A program made the translations under genes and the position numbers. The notes under the pieces were generated by a model. The model did not search any database and was not told the DNA's origin. It saw nothing but the letters and a program-made list of their open reading frames with translations. Positions 1-33,538 of a stretch of 64,000 nt of DNA are shown in pieces (the first letter of the stretch is position 1; every line of letters starts with the position of its first letter). The stretch is from a virus: positions 41,426 to 105,425 of IMG/VR virus record IMGVR_UViG_3300045997_000112. One strand, written 5' to 3'.

Positions 1-530
1 AACTGCTGGGGCTGGAGCCCCAACGTTGCCTTGTCGATGGTGGGGAACCCGGTGGAGATGCCGAGGAGCCCGCCCGGCCGGTTCTTCCGGGCCGTGTAGT
101 CGTGGTACCGCTGCACCGGGTCATCGGTCAGGTTGACGATGCCGGTGTCGGTCATCGCGCCCTCGATCTCGGCGATCGTCTTCATCGCCACCGCGAGGAT
201 GTCGTCGGCCGACCCGCGCTTCTCCAGCAGGGCCACCTGCCGCTCCACCATCTGGAACACGAGGTGGTGCCGGTGGTCGGCAAGGCTGGCATCGACAACC
301 GCGTCGAGCCCGTCCTCAACCTTGACCAGCCGCAAGCTGGGGAACTCCCGCTTGATCATGGCGCCCGTGGGCACCTCGCTGTACTTGGCGTTGTGGCGAC
401 AGATGAAGTCGAAGGCGTCCCGGTAGTCCGGGCTCTTGAAGGTGTCCTTGGTGACGCCCCGGCGCAGGGGCGTGTCCACATCCCGCTCGAGAGCGATCCT
501 GCTGATGAGCCGTGCATCTTGATCCGACAT
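1..530 (-). CDS. Replicative DnaB-like helicase, N-terminal part (runs off left edge)
   Basis: The gene starts at an ATG at 530 with a good ribosome binding site (AGGAG about 9 bases upstream) and is still open at base 1, so only about 176 residues are seen. The N-terminal part is helical, as in DnaB N-terminal domains. It is followed near residue 160 by ISTGFPTIDKATLGLQP, which fits the STGxxxLDxxxGGLxP segment that opens the RecA-like motor of DnaB-family helicases. The Walker A motif should lie just beyond the window. By family it would unwind DNA ahead of the phage replisome. Three genes upstream, 542-2111, overlap or nearly abut and may include its loader. Partial only because of the window edge. 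Confidence 0.8.
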   Translation of the reverse strand, partial: MSDQDARLISRIALERDVDTPLRRGVTKDTFKSPDYRDAFDFICRHNAKYSEVPTGAMIKREFPSLRLVKVEDGLDAVVDASLADHRHHLVFQMVERQVALLEKRGSADDILAVAMKTIAEIEGAMTDTGIVNLTDDPVQRYHDYTARKNRPGGLLGISTGFPTIDKATLGLQPQQ

Positions 531-23043: not shown

Positions 23044-23751
23044 CTATCCCTCGTAGATGTCGTGCTCGTAGACCACATGGGCGCCCCAGCGCGGGATCTG
23101 CTCCACCACGTCGATCTCGCGCCTCGTGGTGTCGAAGTCGTCCGGGTCGAAGTCCTGGCTGAACTCCGATGGAGGCGGGAACACCTCGGACTCGAACTCC
23201 CGAGGAGCGAACTCGTCCGAGAACGGTGCCGGGTACACCCGGGTGCCATTGAACTGCGGATCGTTGACGACCTCTTCGTCCTTGATCTGCTCGGCCTCCA
23301 CCTGGATGACCACCATGTCGTGCTGGACGTGGCCTTTGGGATAGATCGTGGTCGGCTGGAACAGGGCGCCCCGGTACTCGATGCGGTCGAGCAGGTGCTT
23401 GTCCGGCTCCATCACAATGTTGGGCAGGTACGGCAGGACCTCCGGGGTGTTGATCACCAGGCGCAGGAAGTCGACCGTGTACATGCCCCGCTCGTTGTGG
23501 CCGCCGGGGCCCTGCTCGATGGTGGCCAGCACGACGGGGAGCTCGATCGGCGTGAACCAGACCCGCCCACGGTTCCAGTAGTCGCCCACGTCATAGGTGG
23601 GATCGACATGGGTGCCATCGGGGTTGAACACCCACCACAGCACGGACTGCCCCACCGGGTTCTGCAGATCCTGGGTGATGCCCTGCCCGATGGACTCCAC
23701 CTCGAAGGTCGTGGTGAAGCGGCCCGTCAGGTTGCCGCCGCCGCCCCTCAC
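23044..23751 (-). CDS. Neck-region hypothetical protein, 235 aa
   Basis: The start is the GTG at 23751, which overlaps the TGA of the upstream gene. The N-terminal 20 residues are glycine-rich. A beta-rich domain follows (VGQSVLWWVFNPDGTHVDPT, VWFTPIELPVVLATIEQGPG), and the C-terminus is acidic (SEFSQDFDPDDFDTTRREID). It resembles head closure or completion proteins in size and place but carries no motif that I can name. Confidence 0.6.
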   Translation of the reverse strand: MRGGGGNLTGRFTTTFEVESIGQGITQDLQNPVGQSVLWWVFNPDGTHVDPTYDVGDYWNRGRVWFTPIELPVVLATIEQGPGGHNERGMYTVDFLRLVINTPEVLPYLPNIVMEPDKHLLDRIEYRGALFQPTTIYPKGHVQHDMVVIQVEAEQIKDEEVVNDPQFNGTRVYPAPFSDEFAPREFESEVFPPPSEFSQDFDPDDFDTTRREIDVVEQIPRWGAHVVYEHDIYEG

Positions 23752-24947
23752 AGCCCGGGCCCTGCGGGCTGGGGAACCCACGAGGCACCGGTACTGATCG
23801 GCGTCACACCCGGCTCGATGGCCAGGCTGGGCTCGTCGTAGTCGGTCATGCGCGGGACGGTCACATCCTTGGGCACGTACAGCCACCCGCCCACCAAGGT
23901 TGTGATCACCCGCTTCTCGAAGTCATCCCCGAAGTCAGAGCTGAGTCCTCCGCCATCGGGCGGGAGCTCCATCTGCAGGTCCCAGACCATGTTCTCCGGG
24001 AACTGCTCGGACCGGTTGGCCGGGAGGGTGAGCACGACGTTGTGCTCGTCCACCCGGGTGACGCCGAACTCAGCCACGATGACGCTCGAGCCCCGGTAGC
24101 GCTTGATGTGCGCGCGCAGCCGGGCCTTCTCGGGGATGTAGGTCTCGATCTTGATGGGCTCCACCACGGTGTCGCCCCGCAGCATGGTGATGTCGTGGTT
24201 GGGGATCCCGTCGTCCACGATCTTGCCGCCGTACGTCGGGATGGGCAGCCGCACCCGCTGAGGCATCGAACGGTCGTCGATCTCCTGCGGCCGGAAGACG
24301 GGCACGTACCGGTTGGTGCGCTTGGAGATCCGCCGGAAGGTGAAGACCTCCAGCGCGTACATCCCAACATTGAGGTTGGAGGAGAGGTCCCGGTAGCGGG
24401 CCTCCAGCAGCTGGAGCAGCTCGTACAGCTGGCGGTACCGCTCGGACCGAGGGATGTTGACGCCGTCGGGAGCGTTGATGTCGATGTCGTATGAGGCATC
24501 GGTGAGCAGCACGTACAGGCACTGGATGGCGCAGAGGATCTGCAGCGGGAGGTCCTCGAGCGGCTCAAGGTTGTACAGGGTGAGCGTCCGACCCAAAACG
24601 TCCGTCCGGTTGGCCGTGTGCATCTCGAACGAGTCCTGGCAGATCTTCTCCAGCTCACTGTCGGTGAAGAACCGGGTGTGCACTCCAGCAGCGGCGATCG
24701 TCACGCCCTTCTTCGGCGGGTGATCAAAGATCAGGGTTCCGGTGTGCTCCTCGACTGCCACATCCTCGGAGACTTCAACCCCATCCAGGTGCACTGCCAC
24801 CGAGTTGGCGCGGACGGGCGAGTAGTCCAGGGTGTACCGGTTGGTCCCGCCAACGGCAACGATCGTCTGCAGGAACGACTTCTCCGGATCGGAGATCTGG
24901 CGCCGCACGGCGAACAGCAGGTCTGACATCTCCATGCCGCCCATCAT
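23748..24947 (-). CDS. Neck/head-tail connector protein, about 399 aa
   Basis: Several in-frame ATGs at 24947, 24944, 24935 and 24929 are possible starts; the longest is given. Residues 35-100 contain a beta motif (TNRYTLDYSPVRANSVAVHL, then FDHPPKKGVTIAAAGVHTRF) followed by FTDSELEKICQDSFE, a pattern seen in adaptor-like proteins of actinobacteriophages. The middle is helical (YRQLYELLQLLEARYRDLSS). The C-terminal third is beta-rich. It is encoded just after the capsid cluster and before other neck genes. Confidence 0.6.
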   Translation of the reverse strand: MMGGMEMSDLLFAVRRQISDPEKSFLQTIVAVGGTNRYTLDYSPVRANSVAVHLDGVEVSEDVAVEEHTGTLIFDHPPKKGVTIAAAGVHTRFFTDSELEKICQDSFEMHTANRTDVLGRTLTLYNLEPLEDLPLQILCAIQCLYVLLTDASYDIDINAPDGVNIPRSERYRQLYELLQLLEARYRDLSSNLNVGMYALEVFTFRRISKRTNRYVPVFRPQEIDDRSMPQRVRLPIPTYGGKIVDDGIPNHDITMLRGDTVVEPIKIETYIPEKARLRAHIKRYRGSSVIVAEFGVTRVDEHNVVLTLPANRSEQFPENMVWDLQMELPPDGGGLSSDFGDDFEKRVITTLVGGWLYVPKDVTVPRMTDYDEPSLAIEPGVTPISTGASWVPQPAGPGL

Positions 24948-24987
24948 CCCTCAGACGACGGGCCCCATGGGGGCCTTACATGGATGA

Positions 24988-25013
24988 GGACCCGGTGCGT
25001 CAACACCGGGTCC
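24988..25013. terminator. 10-bp hairpin, GGACCCGGTG/CACCGGGTCC
   Basis: A perfect 10-bp stem with a 6-base loop lies about 80 bases past the stop of the Acb2-like gene on the minus strand. A second small hairpin (GGCCCC ATG GGGGCC, 24961-24975) follows. Together they probably end transcripts from the Acb2-like gene or separate them from the neck operon. There is no long T tract. The rest of 24948-25094 shows no gene. Confidence 0.65.
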
Positions 25014-25094
25014 TGCCCAAGGGCCTCGTCTATCCAACTCGCCAAAGTCCGACCCCGGGCTTTCACCCACCCTTGTCTAGAAGGCGGACACAGC

Positions 25095-25328
25095 CTACTC
25101 CCGGTAGGCCACCGCTGCGTTGAGCCACATCATTGACTCCTGCAAGGCAGTGAGCGCGAGGCTCCGCTCCCGGCAGTCCGGGATGTTCTCCAGGATCCAC
25201 GCGGCGAACTGCCGGGACTCCGCGCGCACCGCGTCATGACGCGGACCCGTCTGGGGTGTGGCCGGATGGAAGGTGAAGCGCTGCAGCACCTCGAAGCCCG
25301 GGTTCAGCGGGGAGAGCCTCTCCTCCAT
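25095..25328 (-). CDS. acb2: Acb2-like anti-CBASS cyclic-nucleotide sponge, 77 aa
   Basis: The C-terminal half reads IPDCRERSLALTALQESMMW then LNAAVAYRE. This closely fits the hallmark of the Acb2/Tad1 hairpin family (RExSLALTxLEExxMWANAxIAR). The N-terminal RFTFHPATPQTGPRHDAVRA also fits the family's xRFxYHxPxxxQ...RYxAIR. Acb2 proteins form hexamers that bind cyclic di- and trinucleotide signals and so block CBASS defence. The length (77 aa) is normal. It starts 2 bases after the stop of an HNH gene. Differences from the usual motif (LNAAVA for ANAxIA) could alter ligand preference. Confidence 0.82.
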   Translation of the reverse strand: MEERLSPLNPGFEVLQRFTFHPATPQTGPRHDAVRAESRQFAAWILENIPDCRERSLALTALQESMMWLNAAVAYRE

Positions 25329-25329
25329 G

Positions 25330-25911
25330 TCATGTTCCTCTCGTCAGGAGAGCTTGATGAATGGCCCGATGCGTGACCCCGAACTCACGTCCGAGCGCCC
25401 GCAGGCTCATCCCACCTTCTCTCAGTTCTCGGAGCCGAGGTAGGTCCTCGTCCCGAATCTTGGTCGCATGGTGCTGGTTGCCCCTAGGGACGTTGCCGTC
25501 CTTCTCACGATCGTCCATGTTGTCCTGTGGAGTGCCCGCCCGAAGGTGGTCCGGGTTCACACATCGGCGGTTGTCCTTGCACGAGTGCAGGACCATCTTG
25601 CCCTCAGGTACCTCACCCTTGTGAAGCCGATAGGAGTAGACGTGCGCGCGTTTGGACTGTCCCGCGCCCGCCGCGAACTCACCGTACCCGGAGGGCGTCA
25701 GCCGCCCGGTCCAGTTCCAGCAGGTTTCCGTCTTGTCGACTCGAACCCAGAATCGCTCCTCCGTGGAGAGCTTGGCGTAAGGGCGCTGAGAGGGAGGGGC
25801 ACCCGCAGTCCCGTACCGACCCCGATGCTTGGGGCACATCCCCCGGTTCAGTCTCCATGAACCGGGGGAAGAGCAGTCACCGTCGTCTTCGTGGATACAT
25901 ACCCTAACCAT
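25330..25911 (-). CDS. Free-standing HNH endonuclease with C-terminal HTH, 193 aa
   Basis: Residues 1-35 contain cysteine/histidine pairs (CIHEDDGDC, MCPKHRGRYG). Residues 55-130 form the HNH fold: CWNWTGRLTPSGYGEF, then VLHSCKDNRRCVNPDHLRAG and a downstream N. The C-terminal 45 residues (LRELREGGMSLRALGREFGV then THRAIHQALL) are a resolvase-like helix-turn-helix. This is the layout of homing HNH endonucleases. It is inserted between a capsid-cluster gene and the Acb2-like gene and has its own AT-rich promoter region, typical of a mobile intron-less homing gene. Confidence 0.85.
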   Translation of the reverse strand: MVRVCIHEDDGDCSSPGSWRLNRGMCPKHRGRYGTAGAPPSQRPYAKLSTEERFWVRVDKTETCWNWTGRLTPSGYGEFAAGAGQSKRAHVYSYRLHKGEVPEGKMVLHSCKDNRRCVNPDHLRAGTPQDNMDDREKDGNVPRGNQHHATKIRDEDLPRLRELREGGMSLRALGREFGVTHRAIHQALLTRGT

Positions 25912-25945
25912 GAGGTATGTATATCACATCCTACATACGACCTAA
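25908..25945 (-). promoter_or_regulatory. Probable promoter and inverted repeat upstream of the HNH gene
   Basis: On the minus strand TTAGGT is followed 16 bases later by TATACA, close to the ATG. This is a plausible -35/-10 pair in an unusually AT-rich stretch. GTATGTA and TACATAC form an inverted repeat over the same bases, so an operator is possible. The -35 lies inside the end of the upstream gene. Confidence 0.5.
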
Positions 25946-26314
25946 GAGGTACCCGCACTGGTCCAGATGGTCGGCGACATGCTTGTCGACCTTGTACTTC
26001 TGGCCCGCCTTGAACGTGTAGTGGTTGCCGACACCGAGGACCATGTCATCGATGTCCTCGATGACGCGAATGATCACCTGACCGTCCTCCTTCTTGCCGG
26101 TGACCGGAGACATGATCTCCATCTCCACCACCTCGAAGGCACCGAGGCTCTCGTTGGTCTTGGGGTCGAACACGTCGGTCTCGATGATCTCCATCTCGGC
26201 CTGCTGGGCGAGGGCGATCTGGTCCTTGCGCGCGAGCAGCTCTTCCTGCGCGGCAGCGGCCGCCTGCTCCGACTGACGCCCGGTGAAGTCTCCAGGGGAC
26301 TTACGTGTTGCCAT
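25931..26314 (-). CDS. Capsid-cluster hypothetical protein, 127 aa
   Basis: The N-terminus is helical and alanine/glutamine-rich (QSEQAAAAAQEELLARKDQI). The C-terminal 70 residues are a beta domain ending YTFKAGQKYKVDKHVADHLD then QCGYLLGRM. That final pattern (FxxGxxYxVxxxVAxHLxxxGY) is common in a small protein encoded near major capsid genes of actinobacteriophages. A head decoration or completion role is possible but unproven. The start has a GGAG site, and the tRNA lies just upstream. Confidence 0.65.
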   Translation of the reverse strand: MATRKSPGDFTGRQSEQAAAAAQEELLARKDQIALAQQAEMEIIETDVFDPKTNESLGAFEVVEMEIMSPVTGKKEDGQVIIRVIEDIDDMVLGVGNHYTFKAGQKYKVDKHVADHLDQCGYLLGRM

Positions 26315-26372
26315 GCGTTTCTCCTCTATTGGGGGGACAAGAGGATGCTACATGGGTCCATAGAGCATTGGG

Positions 26373-26445
26373 CTCCCCCGCATGGACTCGAACCACGCAC
26401 CTCTCCCGTAACAGGGGAGCGCTCTGCCAGATGAGCTACAGGGGA
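26373..26445 (-). tRNA. tRNA-Asn (GTT)
   Basis: On the minus strand the cloverleaf is complete. The acceptor TCCCCTG pairs with CGGGGGA with one G-T wobble. The D arm contains GCTCATCTGGCAGAGC. The anticodon stem CTCCC/GGGAG holds the loop CTGTTAC with anticodon GTT. The T arm contains GGTTCGAGTCC. The discriminator is G, and CCA is not encoded. It lies between the capsid gene with its terminators and the 127-aa gene, so it is probably processed from the structural transcript. Confidence 0.95.
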
Positions 26446-26470: not shown

Positions 26471-26502
26471 AAGAAGCCCCGAGGGCCGCCTCGGGGCTCT
26501 TC
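26471..26502. terminator. Hairpin terminator after the capsid gene (second of two)
   Basis: AGCCCCGAG (26475-26483) pairs with CTCGGGGCT (26490-26498), with additional flanking A/T pairs. On the minus strand it is followed by CTTCTTCAT, so it looks like a usable intrinsic terminator. It lies between the major capsid gene and the tRNA. Confidence 0.7.
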
Positions 26503-26587: not shown

Positions 26588-27562
26588 CTAGTTGGTCTTG
26601 ATCCGGACGATCGCGTCGTCGGTGATCTTGCCCAGACCCCAGATGCTGTACCAGGCGAGGGCATGCTCTCGGCCGAAGTCGAGGATCCCGCCGTCGCGCA
26701 GCTCCACGGGGAGGCTGATCGCGTGACCGAACGCGTTGTCACCGATCACGATGGCGTCGTAGACGCCACCATTGTTGGCGACCTGGGTGGTCTCGATGAA
26801 GACCACGTCGTAGAGCCGGCCGATCTCGCCGATCATGAAGTTGCCCGGGGCCGCGTACTTCGAGACCTCGATGAACTCCGGCGTGTCGCGCAGGCGGCGG
26901 GACTGGTGCGGGTGCACGAAGCACACGTAGGTCTCGCCCAGACGCGGCATGTTCTTGCTGGCCAGGGTCTCCACGGCGTCCTTCACCGCGTGAGTGGTCA
27001 GGTTGAACGGATCGGTCGCCGTCCCGACGACCGTGGTGGCATCGCCGACCTCACCCGGGTCGTACCAGTTGTTGACGGCACCGAGCCCCTTGCGGTTGTA
27101 GCCGTAGACGACCGAGGTGCCGGTCATCAGCGTGTCGCGGGCCTGGGTGTCCAGGTACAGCGCCATGTTGCGGCCGAGCAGACGGGAGGCGGAGGCCATC
27201 ACGTCGTCGAACGAGGCGTTGAGCAGGAGCTCCGACACCGAGACGGCGAAGCCGTGCTCCGAGACCGTGATGCTGTACTGCGAGGCAGTCAGCGCCGAGG
27301 TCTGCATGCGGATGCCCTCGACCAGCGGCGTGGCGCTGGGGAGGTTGTTGTACCGCATGAAGTTGACGGTGAGGCCGGGGGCGACGCCGAGTTCGGTCTT
27401 CTTGACGGCGAACTGCTCGAACCGAAGGATCGGCATCGCCTGGAAGAGGATCTCCTTGGACCAGATGGTCTGGATCGCCTGGGTGAGCTGTGCGTTGGCG
27501 CCTGGGTAGGCGGTGGGGGCAGCGGCGAGATTGCCGGTACCGGTGATGGCTGAACCTGCCAT
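26588..27562 (-). CDS. Major capsid protein (N4-gp56-like family), 324 aa
   Basis: The pattern IWSKEILFQAMPILRFEQFA, then PGLTVNFMRYNNLPSATPLV, SQYSITVSEHGFAVSVSELL and LLGRNMALYLDTQARD fits the N4-gp56 group of HK97-fold major capsid proteins. The C-terminal half has VCFVHPHQSRRLRDTPEFIE and a beta-rich A-domain. It follows the scaffold gene, as expected, and is the only gene in the window followed by two strong terminators. It forms the icosahedral shell. Confidence 0.9.
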   Translation of the reverse strand: MAGSAITGTGNLAAAPTAYPGANAQLTQAIQTIWSKEILFQAMPILRFEQFAVKKTELGVAPGLTVNFMRYNNLPSATPLVEGIRMQTSALTASQYSITVSEHGFAVSVSELLLNASFDDVMASASRLLGRNMALYLDTQARDTLMTGTSVVYGYNRKGLGAVNNWYDPGEVGDATTVVGTATDPFNLTTHAVKDAVETLASKNMPRLGETYVCFVHPHQSRRLRDTPEFIEVSKYAAPGNFMIGEIGRLYDVVFIETTQVANNGGVYDAIVIGDNAFGHAISLPVELRDGGILDFGREHALAWYSIWGLGKITDDAIVRIKTN

Positions 27563-30583: not shown

Positions 30584-30982
30584 TCAGTCGCGGACGACGT
30601 TGGGCGCGGCGCGGTGCAGGCGGGTCTCGGAACCCATCTCGAGCTCCCACTGCGGGGAGTCGTAGTTGGTGAACGACCCCTGCACGAACTCCCGCAGGAA
30701 CGTCGGGGCCTCGACCCAGGACGCCGAACCTGCGTGCGCGCGCTGCTTCATCGTCTCAGCCGGGGGCTTGATGAAGACCGGGGCGTTGCGGTTGGGGCGG
30801 CCGGGAGCCGGGGTCTCGCCCTGGCGGATGCCGGTCACGAAGTCGGCCGGGATGTCCGGGTCAGACCCGAGACCCTCCTGGAACAGGTGGGGACCCTCGT
30901 TGCCGGGGATGGACTCCCCGACCTTCTGGTCGAAGAAGGTGGGGGTGCGCTCGGGGAAGCTGGGGACCGGAGCGATGGCCAT
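30584..30982 (-). CDS. Conserved hypothetical protein near portal, 132 aa
   Basis: The ATG start is followed by a proline-rich, extended N-terminus and then VFIKPPAETMKQRAHAGSAS and WVEAPTFLREFVQG. That second stretch looks conserved and recalls a protein found near portal/terminase genes in other actinobacteriophages. It is probably a virion component. No motif points to an activity. Confidence 0.65.
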   Translation of the reverse strand: MAIAPVPSFPERTPTFFDQKVGESIPGNEGPHLFQEGLGSDPDIPADFVTGIRQGETPAPGRPNRNAPVFIKPPAETMKQRAHAGSASWVEAPTFLREFVQGSFTNYDSPQWELEMGSETRLHRAAPNVVRD

Positions 30983-31201: not shown

Positions 31202-33538
31202 TCAGCTGAACCATGGGGCGACGGATACGTCCACATGGGGGATGTGCATCTCGGCGGTGCAGTAGGCCGCGATGGCCAGACTGTCCACGAAGTCGTCGTG
31301 GGCCCCGGTCTCATTGGGGGCCTCCACGGTGAAGTACTGCCCGGAGAACTTCTTCTCCGCGTCGAGCATCTGCTGCATGAAGCGCTGGTACACCTTCAGC
31401 CGCCGGGTCTTCGCGTGCGCGGGCCATCCGATAGAGCGTCGCTGGATGAGGGAGGTGAGGTGCTTCCAGCGCTTGGCCTGCTCCGCCTGGTTGGAGCCGA
31501 AGGACAGCACCTCCGAGCGGGGGAGCAGGAGCTTGAGGCGCTGGGCCACCGCATCGCCGACACCCGTGGAGTCCACGCCCACGGCAAGCACGTCGTAGGG
31601 CGCGAGGAAGTTCACGATCTGGAAGTACTGCTCCTCCCAGTCGTCACCCTGGATCTCGAGCCAGTTCAGGACCCGGTGGTCGAAGAAGCCGAACTCATCC
31701 GGGGCGTCCCAGTTCACCCACAGGACGGTCACCACTGTTGAGTCAACCTTGCGCGCGGGGTCCACGCCCACCACGACCGGGCTCTGGTTCCAACCCCGGA
31801 CGATCTGCTGGCTGGTGTCGCCCAGCGACTCGAAGGCCGACTGGCTGATGAACATGCCCCGGTCGAGCATCCACTTGCAGTTGTGAGAGGCGAGACCCTC
31901 GGCTATGAAGGTCTTGGTGGTGGTCTCCAGGGCGACCAGCTCGATCTCGCCCACGAACTCCTTCGACACGACGAGTGGGTGCTCAAAGCGCTGCGACACG
32001 TGGTCGTGCCTGCCGATGGACCCTAGGAGGTCGATGTTCAACTTGTCCAGCAGACGCTGCGGCCTGATCTGGCCGAGAAAGCGGAGAGCACCGGCGCGAC
32101 CGCCTGCGACAAACACGTTGTGGACGTCACCGTTGGTGCCGTTCGGCTTCACGCGGTCCCACGTCGGCACACCCTTGGCGGCGAGGTGCTCGCGCACATC
32201 GGCCAGCATGAGGTTGTCCTTCTGGGAGAACCCGATGACGGTCTGCCCCTTGCGCTGGAGGAAGTGGCCCTCCCCGTCGAACGCCGCCGCGAGGTACCCG
32301 GTCTCGTAGTCGTGGTCGTGTCCCCACACATCGACCAACTTGAAGATACGGTCGGTGGTGAGCAGGTCCTCGGTGGTCTTCCACTCGGTGCGCCTCCCAG
32401 CGGTGGAGACCAACCAGAGGTGTCCGCTGGATGACGTGACCTCGGTTCCGTCGTCCAACGTCACCTGGTAACTTGGCCGGATCACGCGAGCGGTGCTCGT
32501 CACGACCGACTCCCGAAACTGCCGATGGGCCCCCTTCTCGGGGCGCTCTTCGTCGAACCCAACGAGCCTGTCACCCACGACGAGGTCACCAGCAGGTACG
32601 TATCGTAGGTCAGCGGTCAGGACTCGGGTCTCAGCCACTACGCAATTGTAGGACATCTGGAACTCGTCCGAGTCCTCGCCCAGCTGCAGCATCTCCTTGC
32701 GGATGTACTTCTTGTAGTTGGGGTTGACCTTCACCACGTCCCGCCAGTTCCACTCGAAGTGGTTCCTGCGGCTGGCCTTGGCCACGGCGGTGCGCTTGTT
32801 GATCTGGATGCTCTTGTAGAAGTTGTTCTTCTTGGTGGTTGGCGTCCCGGTCTTCACCATGGTGGCGTTGTAGTAAGCGCCCATCGGGGAGATCGACTTG
32901 GAGACGATCAGGTCGTCGGCGTCCTGACACTCGTCGATGATGATCAGGTGGAACGACTTCGACTCAATCTTGGCGCGCGGGTTGGCGGTCATCATCATGA
33001 GCACCGAGCCGGACCTCTTGAGCTGCACGCCCCGGGTGACGCCCGGGTTCTTGGCCGTCACGTCGTCGATCTCCGGGTCCCCGAGAATCTCGAGGGCCCG
33101 CTCCGAGCTGAGCCGGGTGACCGTGCGGCCGAACAGCGTCTCGGCCTGGGCCTCGATCGGGGCGAACATGCCGACCCAAAAGCCAGTGGCGAACTTGCCG
33201 AGGAGGTCCGGGTAGATCTTGGCCAGCCTCGGGAGGAGCACCATGAGCGCAGCGACCACGTTGGCCAGGATCTCGCTCTTGCCCGACTGCCGGGCCGCCA
33301 GAGCGGTGAGGAGGCTCCCATCATTGATGACGACCGAGCGGATGATGCGCCGGGCGAACGGGACCTGGTAGGCGTGCAGCTGGTGCCCGGCCAGCAGGTA
33401 GGTGAAGGCGAGGATCTTGTCGATGAGGTCTTCGACGAACTCTTCGGAGAACTCGTCCAGATCCTCTTCGGAGGAGAATCCCTCACCCTCCTGGATGGTG
33501 GCCTCTTGGTCCGCGTCAAGAACGAGGGTCTCATCCAC
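31202..33538 (-). CDS. terL: Terminase large subunit interrupted by an in-frame intein, 778 aa
   Basis: Residues 81-88 (AARQSGKS) are the Walker A motif and 199-203 (IIIDE) the Walker B of the packaging ATPase. After residue 298 an intein of 255 residues intervenes, starting with C299 and ending HN before C554. The mature exteins join as FQMSYN-CKWMLDRGMF. The C-terminal nuclease has acidic residues in VVVGVDPARK, AVGVDSTGVGDA and HDDFVDSLAIA, as in RNase H-like terminases. Extein length is 523 aa, normal for TerL. GTG start, overlapping the previous stop by eight bases. Confidence 0.93.
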   Translation of the reverse strand: MDETLVLDADQEATIQEGEGFSSEEDLDEFSEEFVEDLIDKILAFTYLLAGHQLHAYQVPFARRIIRSVVINDGSLLTALAARQSGKSEILANVVAALMVLLPRLAKIYPDLLGKFATGFWVGMFAPIEAQAETLFGRTVTRLSSERALEILGDPEIDDVTAKNPGVTRGVQLKRSGSVLMMMTANPRAKIESKSFHLIIIDECQDADDLIVSKSISPMGAYYNATMVKTGTPTTKKNNFYKSIQINKRTAVAKASRRNHFEWNWRDVVKVNPNYKKYIRKEMLQLGEDSDEFQMSYNCVVAETRVLTADLRYVPAGDLVVGDRLVGFDEERPEKGAHRQFRESVVTSTARVIRPSYQVTLDDGTEVTSSSGHLWLVSTAGRRTEWKTTEDLLTTDRIFKLVDVWGHDHDYETGYLAAAFDGEGHFLQRKGQTVIGFSQKDNLMLADVREHLAAKGVPTWDRVKPNGTNGDVHNVFVAGGRAGALRFLGQIRPQRLLDKLNIDLLGSIGRHDHVSQRFEHPLVVSKEFVGEIELVALETTTKTFIAEGLASHNCKWMLDRGMFISQSAFESLGDTSQQIVRGWNQSPVVVGVDPARKVDSTVVTVLWVNWDAPDEFGFFDHRVLNWLEIQGDDWEEQYFQIVNFLAPYDVLAVGVDSTGVGDAVAQRLKLLLPRSEVLSFGSNQAEQAKRWKHLTSLIQRRSIGWPAHAKTRRLKVYQRFMQQMLDAEKKFSGQYFTVEAPNETGAHDDFVDSLAIAAYCTAEMHIPHVDVSVAPWFS
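31880..32644 (-). mobile_element. Intein with LAGLIDADG-type endonuclease in terL, 255 aa
   Basis: Block A begins CVVAETRVLTADLRYVPAGD. Block B has TSSSGHLWLVS. An endonuclease-like motif, ETGYLAAAFDGEGHF, resembles one LAGLIDADG helix. The C-terminal blocks are EIELVALETTTKTFIAEGLA then SHN, with the penultimate His and final Asn needed for splicing, and a Cys as first C-extein residue. Only one LAGLIDADG motif is visible and the central part is short, so the endonuclease may be reduced. Ordinary codon use suggests long residence. Confidence 0.92.

What the first reader, a model, noticed from the sequence alone, without database searches (positions are those of the whole stretch)
25095..25328. 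Acb2-type anti-CBASS sponge in the capsid/neck region
The short protein keeps the RExSLALTxLxExxMW core and the N-terminal RFTFHP...RxDAVRA of the Acb2/Tad1 hairpin family, whose members bind CBASS (and some Thoeris) cyclic nucleotides. It differs in the last part (LNAAVA), near residues that line the pockets in the family, so ligand choice may differ. Its location inside the virion operon, next to a homing HNH gene, raises the question of timing: an anti-defence protein in a structural transcript would appear late unless it has its own promoter.
Basis: partly seen in the sequence, partly recalled or inferred. Interest (0 to 1): 0.8.

Follow-up and report, generated by a model that had tools for sequence, protein, structure and literature searches.

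The report
Phage Acb2 immune-signal sponge gene
This is a small phage gene, wedged between capsid and neck genes, for a known kind of protein (Acb2) that soaks up the alarm molecules bacteria make during infection; the family call is solid and mostly ordinary, but the gene sits at a different place, and probably has a different origin, from the Acb2 gene of this phage's closest relatives.

Summary
The ORF at 25095-25328 (minus strand, 77 aa) is real and belongs to the Acb2/Tad1 hairpin family: PF24729 63.8 bits, cut-off 27, close to the proven sponges PaP2 Acb2 (66.1) and T4 Vs.4 (71.4). A 53-sequence AlphaFold model (pLDDT 88) has the Acb2 protomer layout (short N-terminal helix plus two long helices) and no Tad1 beta domain. 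Positions equivalent to PaP2 Y11, K26, R67 and T74 are F20, R35, R53 and T60; R35 and R53 are invariant in 77 homologues. Against a near-identical phage the gene shows 6 synonymous, 0 nonsynonymous changes. All five isolated relatives (Streptomyces BRock group) and 15 related contigs also keep acb2 in the head operon, but right after the terminase-adjacent gene; here it sits between the gp146 and gp143 homologues, behind an HNH gene, at a junction that is empty in most relatives. A tree favours a separate acquisition (AU p = 0.096, not decisive). HNH adjacency is not general. Ligand, hexamer and timing are untested. New member of a known kind.

The parts
25095..25328 (-). acb2-type sponge gene, 77 aa
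   Evidence: PF24729 63.8 bits vs cut-off 27; phrog_1454; AF2 model pLDDT 87.9 with helices 10-16, 28-48, 53-76; 6 synonymous and 0 nonsynonymous codon changes against L002
25330..25911 (-). HNH_3 endonuclease gene (homing-type), directly upstream; acb2's likely Shine-Dalgarno (GAGAGGAA) lies in its last codons
   Evidence: PF13392 38.9 bits, phrog_3593, weak PADLOC 'HEase' hit; junction sequence; GC3 0.71 vs 0.90 for acb2 and 0.81-0.92 for the head genes around it
25895..25922 (-). 10-bp hairpin that encloses the HNH start codon (ATACATACCTCATGGTTAGGGTATGTAT)
   Evidence: hairpin scan
24987..25014 (-). 12-bp GC-rich hairpin downstream of acb2, no T tract; possible terminator or processing stem
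   Evidence: folding z-score -2.4 for the intergenic stretch
25931..26314 (-). 127-aa head-region gene, homologue of BRock gp146
   Evidence: 34% identity to gp146; present in nearly all loci with this major capsid protein
23748..24947 (-). neck/adaptor-like gene, homologue of BRock gp143
   Evidence: 34% identity to gp143; weak DUF2460 below its cut-off
26588..27562 (-). major capsid protein
   Evidence: PF25209 and phrog_1357; 69-71% to BRock-group capsid proteins
30584..30982 (-). homologue of BRock gp155; in the BRock group acb2 follows this gene, here it does not
   Evidence: 50% identity to gp155; ORFs around it; only one PF24729 match in the whole record

Best explanation
The gene encodes an Acb2-family nucleotide sponge. 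By family knowledge, six copies would assemble into a compact hexamer that binds cyclic dinucleotides in pockets formed by the N-terminal aromatic and basic residues (here F20 and R35) of paired protomers, and cyclic trinucleotides at the three-fold ends lined by R53 and T60; this would hold CBASS alarm molecules away from their effectors and block host suicide. Shown here: family membership, predicted Acb2-like protomer, conserved pocket positions, purifying selection, location. Inferred: hexamer, ligands, anti-CBASS effect. It is an accessory gene probably gained independently of the BRock-group acb2, at the junction between the gp146 and gp143 homologues, behind an HNH endonuclease gene; being in the head operon it is probably made late, together with the capsid protein (inferred).
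For: PF24729 63.8 bits, like PaP2 Acb2 66.1 and T4 Vs.4 71.4. Profile anchors put PaP2 Y11 / T4 Y8 on F20; alignment puts K26 on R35, R67 on R53, T74 on T60; R35 and R53 are 77/77, T60 73/77. T4 Y8A and F82C lose cyclic-dinucleotide function (PMC12657218). [quoted passage not shown] The best Foldseek viral hits are mostly Acb2/Tad1 hairpin proteins, probability 1.0. 6 synonymous, 0 nonsynonymous changes vs L002. Context: BRock group has acb2 after gp155; the gp146-gp143 junction is 45-132 nt in most relatives and about 990 nt in L002, which carries the same genes. Tree: sister to L111 (99/84), outside the BRock clade.
Against: No binding or infection data. Hexamer not modelled. Foldseek against PDB is not significant (Vs.4-cGAMP 7uq2 at rank 7, E 3.7). 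AU test does not reject one origin with the BRock group (p 0.096), and few columns are available. F20 replaces the tyrosine of the proven sponges; L69 and Y75 are unusual. No sigma-70-like promoter was found, but actinophage promoters may be missed, so timing is unknown.
Confidence: 0.85

Rival explanations
1. Same fold, changed ligand: the protein is a sponge whose main target is not a CBASS dinucleotide but cyclic trinucleotides only, or another cyclic nucleotide, because of F20 in place of tyrosine and the unusual L69 and Y75.
For: L69 and Y75 each occur once in 77 homologues; Y75 is the neighbour of the position equivalent to T4 F82, which stacks on bound dinucleotides. The trinucleotide-site residues R53 and T60 are kept.
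Against: F at position 20 is as common as Y in the family (41 vs 33 of 77), and R35 is invariant; PaP2 Acb2 itself has A at the F82 position.
Confidence: 0.3
2. A minor virion or assembly protein that merely shares the hairpin, since it lies among head genes.
For: Position between capsid and neck genes, same strand, close spacing.
Against: Absent from the same junction in most relatives; no PF24729 match in 43 records with this capsid type; homologues sit in nucleotide-metabolism regions of other phages; pocket residues kept.
Confidence: 0.05
3. A single old acb2 of the BRock lineage moved within the head operon, rather than a new acquisition (this concerns origin only and is compatible with sponge function).
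For: AU test does not reject one clade with the BRock group (p 0.096).
Against: Sister to L111 with 99/84 support, and two starred branches (95/87 and 98/90) separate it from the BRock clade.
Confidence: 0.25
4. HNH and acb2 travel as a linked module, the endonuclease driving spread of the sponge.
For: HNH gene 1 nt upstream in the window and next to it in L002; in Streptomyces phage Alone3 an endonuclease VII gene is inserted just upstream of its acb2 and is absent in LuckySocke.
Against: HNH_3 found in 13 of 50 acb2 records, and none of the matches lies next to acb2; endonuclease-like genes are inserted at a nearby junction without acb2 too (L053, L068); HNH GC3 0.71 and acb2 GC3 0.90 suggest separate arrivals.
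Confidence: 0.12

Closest known systems
Acb2 of Pseudomonas phages (PaP2 gp26 / PaMx33), PF24729
   Same: Same Pfam domain with similar score (66.1 vs 63.8 bits); aromatic at Y11, basic at K26, R67 and T74 kept as F20, R35, R53, T60
   Different: Shorter stretch between the long helices; Y to F and K to R at the dinucleotide site; little overall sequence identity
T4 Vs.4 (Acb2), PDB 7uq2
   Same: PF24729 71.4 bits; AKTKLKEASMW resembles ALTALQESMMW
   Different: T4 lacks the arginine at R53; F82 corresponds to A74; in T4 the gene lies among small non-structural genes next to regB and vs
Streptomyces phage BRock gp154 and relatives (UniProt name: Acb2/Tad1 hairpin domain-containing protein)
   Same: Same family, also in the head operon of a phage with a 70% identical capsid protein
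   Different: 36-40% identity; located after gp155; the isolates have G at T60, an extra residue and Q for W68
Acb2 homolog 43, PDB 9ptq
   Same: Best solved-structure match of the family profile, E 4e-10
   Different: No WANAA motif; source organism not given by the tool
Tad1 (8kbb, 7uav)
   Same: REN(A)xAxTxxxExxMW hairpin motif
   Different: Tad1 chains are 123-138 residues with an N-terminal beta-sheet domain; the window protein has 77 residues and none

Membership tests
Acb2 (Acb2/Tad1 hairpin, PF24729) | Match to PF24729 above the curated cut-off | tested here: met
   63.8 bits vs 27
[quoted passage not shown]
   AF2 with 53 sequences, pLDDT 87.9, helices 10-16, 28-48, 53-76; description in PMC10419184
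Acb2 (Acb2/Tad1 hairpin, PF24729) | Dinucleotide-site residues (PaP2 Y11 and K26; T4 Y8) | tested here: inconclusive
   Conservatively replaced by F20 and R35; R35 is 77/77 in the family. The role of K26 is from memory
Acb2 (Acb2/Tad1 hairpin, PF24729) | Trinucleotide-site residues (PaP2 R67 and T74) | tested here: met
   R53 and T60 identical; the assignment of R67 and T74 to this site is from memory
Acb2 (Acb2/Tad1 hairpin, PF24729) | Homohexamer | not testable with these tools
   Only monomer prediction was available
Acb2 (Acb2/Tad1 hairpin, PF24729) | Binds cyclic di- or trinucleotides and inhibits CBASS | not testable with these tools
   Needs purified protein and infection assays
Tad1 | N-terminal beta-sheet domain (beta1-beta4) before the hairpin | tested here: not met
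   Model has no strands; definition in PMC12043709
HNH homing endonuclease (neighbour gene) | HNH_3 domain | tested here: met
   38.9 bits vs 24.8
HNH homing endonuclease (neighbour gene) | Mobility: presence/absence between near-identical genomes | tested here: inconclusive
   The only near-identical genome (L002) also has it; more distant relatives lack it

The most novel reading that the evidence does not exclude
Sponges of this type have been gained repeatedly into head and lysis operons so that they are made at the same time as the capsid protein, which in some systems is linked to CBASS or other sensing; the window phage gained its own copy independently of its relatives, with a changed pocket that suits the host's signal.
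Probability: 0.2. Interest if true: 0.55.

Novelty: new member of a known kind. Interest (0 to 1): 0.3.

Why it matters
It adds a well-supported Acb2-family sponge in a lineage of large contractile-tailed phages (nearest isolates infect Streptomyces) where the gene is still annotated as hypothetical in GenBank. Every isolated relative examined keeps an acb2 in the head operon, yet the window phage's copy is in another place and probably of another origin, which suggests steady pressure from nucleotide-based immunity in these hosts. Placement in head or lysis modules in several unrelated phages makes a testable question: whether late sponges answer alarms that are raised late.

Tried and rejected
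HNH-acb2 as a general module: rejected by position of HNH_3 matches in 50 acb2 records. Search for host genomes that encode a close homologue: none confirmed by tblastn. Plasmid search: only distant homologues, one in a phage-like region. Own promoter: no sigma-70-type match, not informative for actinobacteria. Direct sequence comparison of the family with PaP2 Acb2: not significant by hhalign, so residue mapping rests on the PF24729 anchors and a MAFFT alignment. Single-sequence AF2 model: pLDDT 72, superseded. Foldseek against PDB: not significant. PADLOC and NCBIfam: no hit for the sponge. The primary Acb2 papers (Huiting 2023 and others) are not held in the library, so residue roles other than T4 Y8 and F82 are from memory. 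Long p127-p399 gaps in about ten relatives turned out mostly to be divergent N-termini of the neck gene, not cargo.

Full report
Observation. The ORF lies exactly at 25095-25328 on the minus strand, 77 aa, ATG start. It matches PF24729 (Acb2/Tad1 hairpin) with 63.8 bits, cut-off 27, and phrog_1454; it is the only such match in the 105-kb record, and 14 control genomes have none. The experimentally known sponges score alike: PaP2 gp26 66.1, T4 Vs.4 71.4.

Anatomy. Alone the protein is modelled at pLDDT 72; with an alignment of 53 sequences (the protein and homologues from IMG/VR loci) the model reaches 87.9 and shows a short helix (10-16) and two long helices (28-48, 53-76), the protomer described for Acb2 (PMC10419184). 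No strand is predicted, so the Tad1 layout is not met. In the viral structure library the best matches are mostly Acb2/Tad1 hairpin proteins, probability 1.0 with E near 0.005-0.04; in PDB nothing is significant, with Vs.4-cGAMP at rank 7. The hexamer could not be tested.

Pocket residues. Profile anchors (window 19-74, PaP2 10-89, T4 7-83) put PaP2 Y11 and T4 Y8 on F20. The alignment of 77 homologues plus references puts K26 on R35, R67 on R53 and T74 on T60. R35 and R53 are invariant, T60 is 73/77; position 20 is F in 41 and Y in 33. T4 Y8A and F82C are reported to lose function (PMC12657218); the roles of K26, R67 and T74 are from memory. At the C-terminus L69 and Y75 are each unique in the set, where A and R dominate; the rest of LNAAVA is the family consensus.

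Selection. Against L002, a contig about 99% identical over 9.7 kb, acb2 has 6 synonymous and 0 nonsynonymous codon changes; under a rough neutral expectation of 26% synonymous this has probability about 3e-4. Within the BRock-group sequences pN/pS is 0.06-0.16.

Context. The capsid protein is 69-71% identical to those of Streptomyces phages BRock, LuckySocke, Alone3, pSt2308 and GiJojo. All five carry one PF24729 gene, annotated as hypothetical, after the gp155 gene and before the portal. Fifteen metagenomic contigs of that group show the same gp155-acb2 order. In the window the gp155 homologue is at 30584-30982 and no sponge follows; acb2 instead lies between the homologues of gp146 (25931-26314) and gp143 (23748-24947), behind an HNH_3 gene. 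In most relatives that junction is 45-132 nt long; in L002, which carries the same genes, it is about 990 nt; the BRock group has gp144, with or without gp145, there. 43 other records with this capsid type have no PF24729 match, but many are fragments.

Origin. In a tree of 77 sequences the window protein is sister to L111 (99/84), in a group with NTR1, Zuko, L155 and L117 (90/88), several of which lie next to lysis genes; two starred branches separate it from the BRock clade. An AU test of one clade gives p = 0.096, so a separate acquisition is favoured, not proven. HNH GC3 is 0.71 and acb2 GC3 0.90, which fits separate arrivals.

Endonuclease. In Alone3 an endonuclease VII gene sits just upstream of acb2, with LuckySocke as the empty form, 99-100% identical on both sides. 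Still, HNH_3 matches in 50 acb2 records are not adjacent to acb2, so the pairing is most simply explained by frequent endonuclease insertions in head operons.

Late modules. In the records I opened, acb2 lies in head or tail modules in ChisanaKitsune, Quhwah, a Rhodococcus plasmid with phage genes and S-2L, left of terminase in SamScheppers, in lysis modules in NTR1, Zuko, Bing and PSonyx, and among replication or nucleotide-metabolism genes in Octobien14, Anthony, Mollymur, CRB1 and Ley. This is a small, non-random sample. CBASS escape through capsid mutations is reported (PMC10419184), which makes co-expression with the capsid an attractive but untested idea.

Verdict. A sound new member of a known family, with an interesting but ordinary history of gain. 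Acb2 in actinophages has already been noted (PMC13348362; PMC11953737).

Noticed in passing
window 26921-27097 (major capsid codons 156-214): Against L002 the capsid protein is identical except for 16 changed residues in codons 156-185 and one at 214, although flanking genes are about 99% identical; looks like a recombined patch in the capsid protein.
   Followed up: partly
window 31202-33538: Terminase large subunit carries an insertion of about 230 aa (residues ~319-550) with a LAGLIDADG_3 domain, absent in BRock terminase: very likely an intein.
   Followed up: partly
window 26371-26445: tRNA-Asn between the capsid gene and the gp146 homologue; L002 has a ~552-bp insertion exactly at its 3' end, with an ORF that begins like a signal peptide.
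   Followed up: partly
L092:3473-3988 vs L089: Endonuclease VII gene inserted at the very end of the gp155 gene in Alone3, with the last codons of gp155 re-coded and the original tail left downstream.
   Followed up: partly
L088, L089, L090, L091 acb2 genes: Isolated BRock-group phages have an Acb2 with T60 to G, W68 to Q and an extra residue, while their metagenomic relatives keep T; possible change or loss of trinucleotide binding.
   Followed up: partly
L104:4001-4192 (cyanophage S-2L): An acb2-like ORF between tail genes is not annotated in the record.
   Followed up: no
Hits H91, H102, H108 (Paenibacillus and Brevibacillus phages): acb2 homologues lie under features annotated as phosphomannomutase, apparently a misannotation.
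   Followed up: no
window 26474-26499: GC-rich hairpin after the capsid gene, a possible terminator.
   Followed up: no
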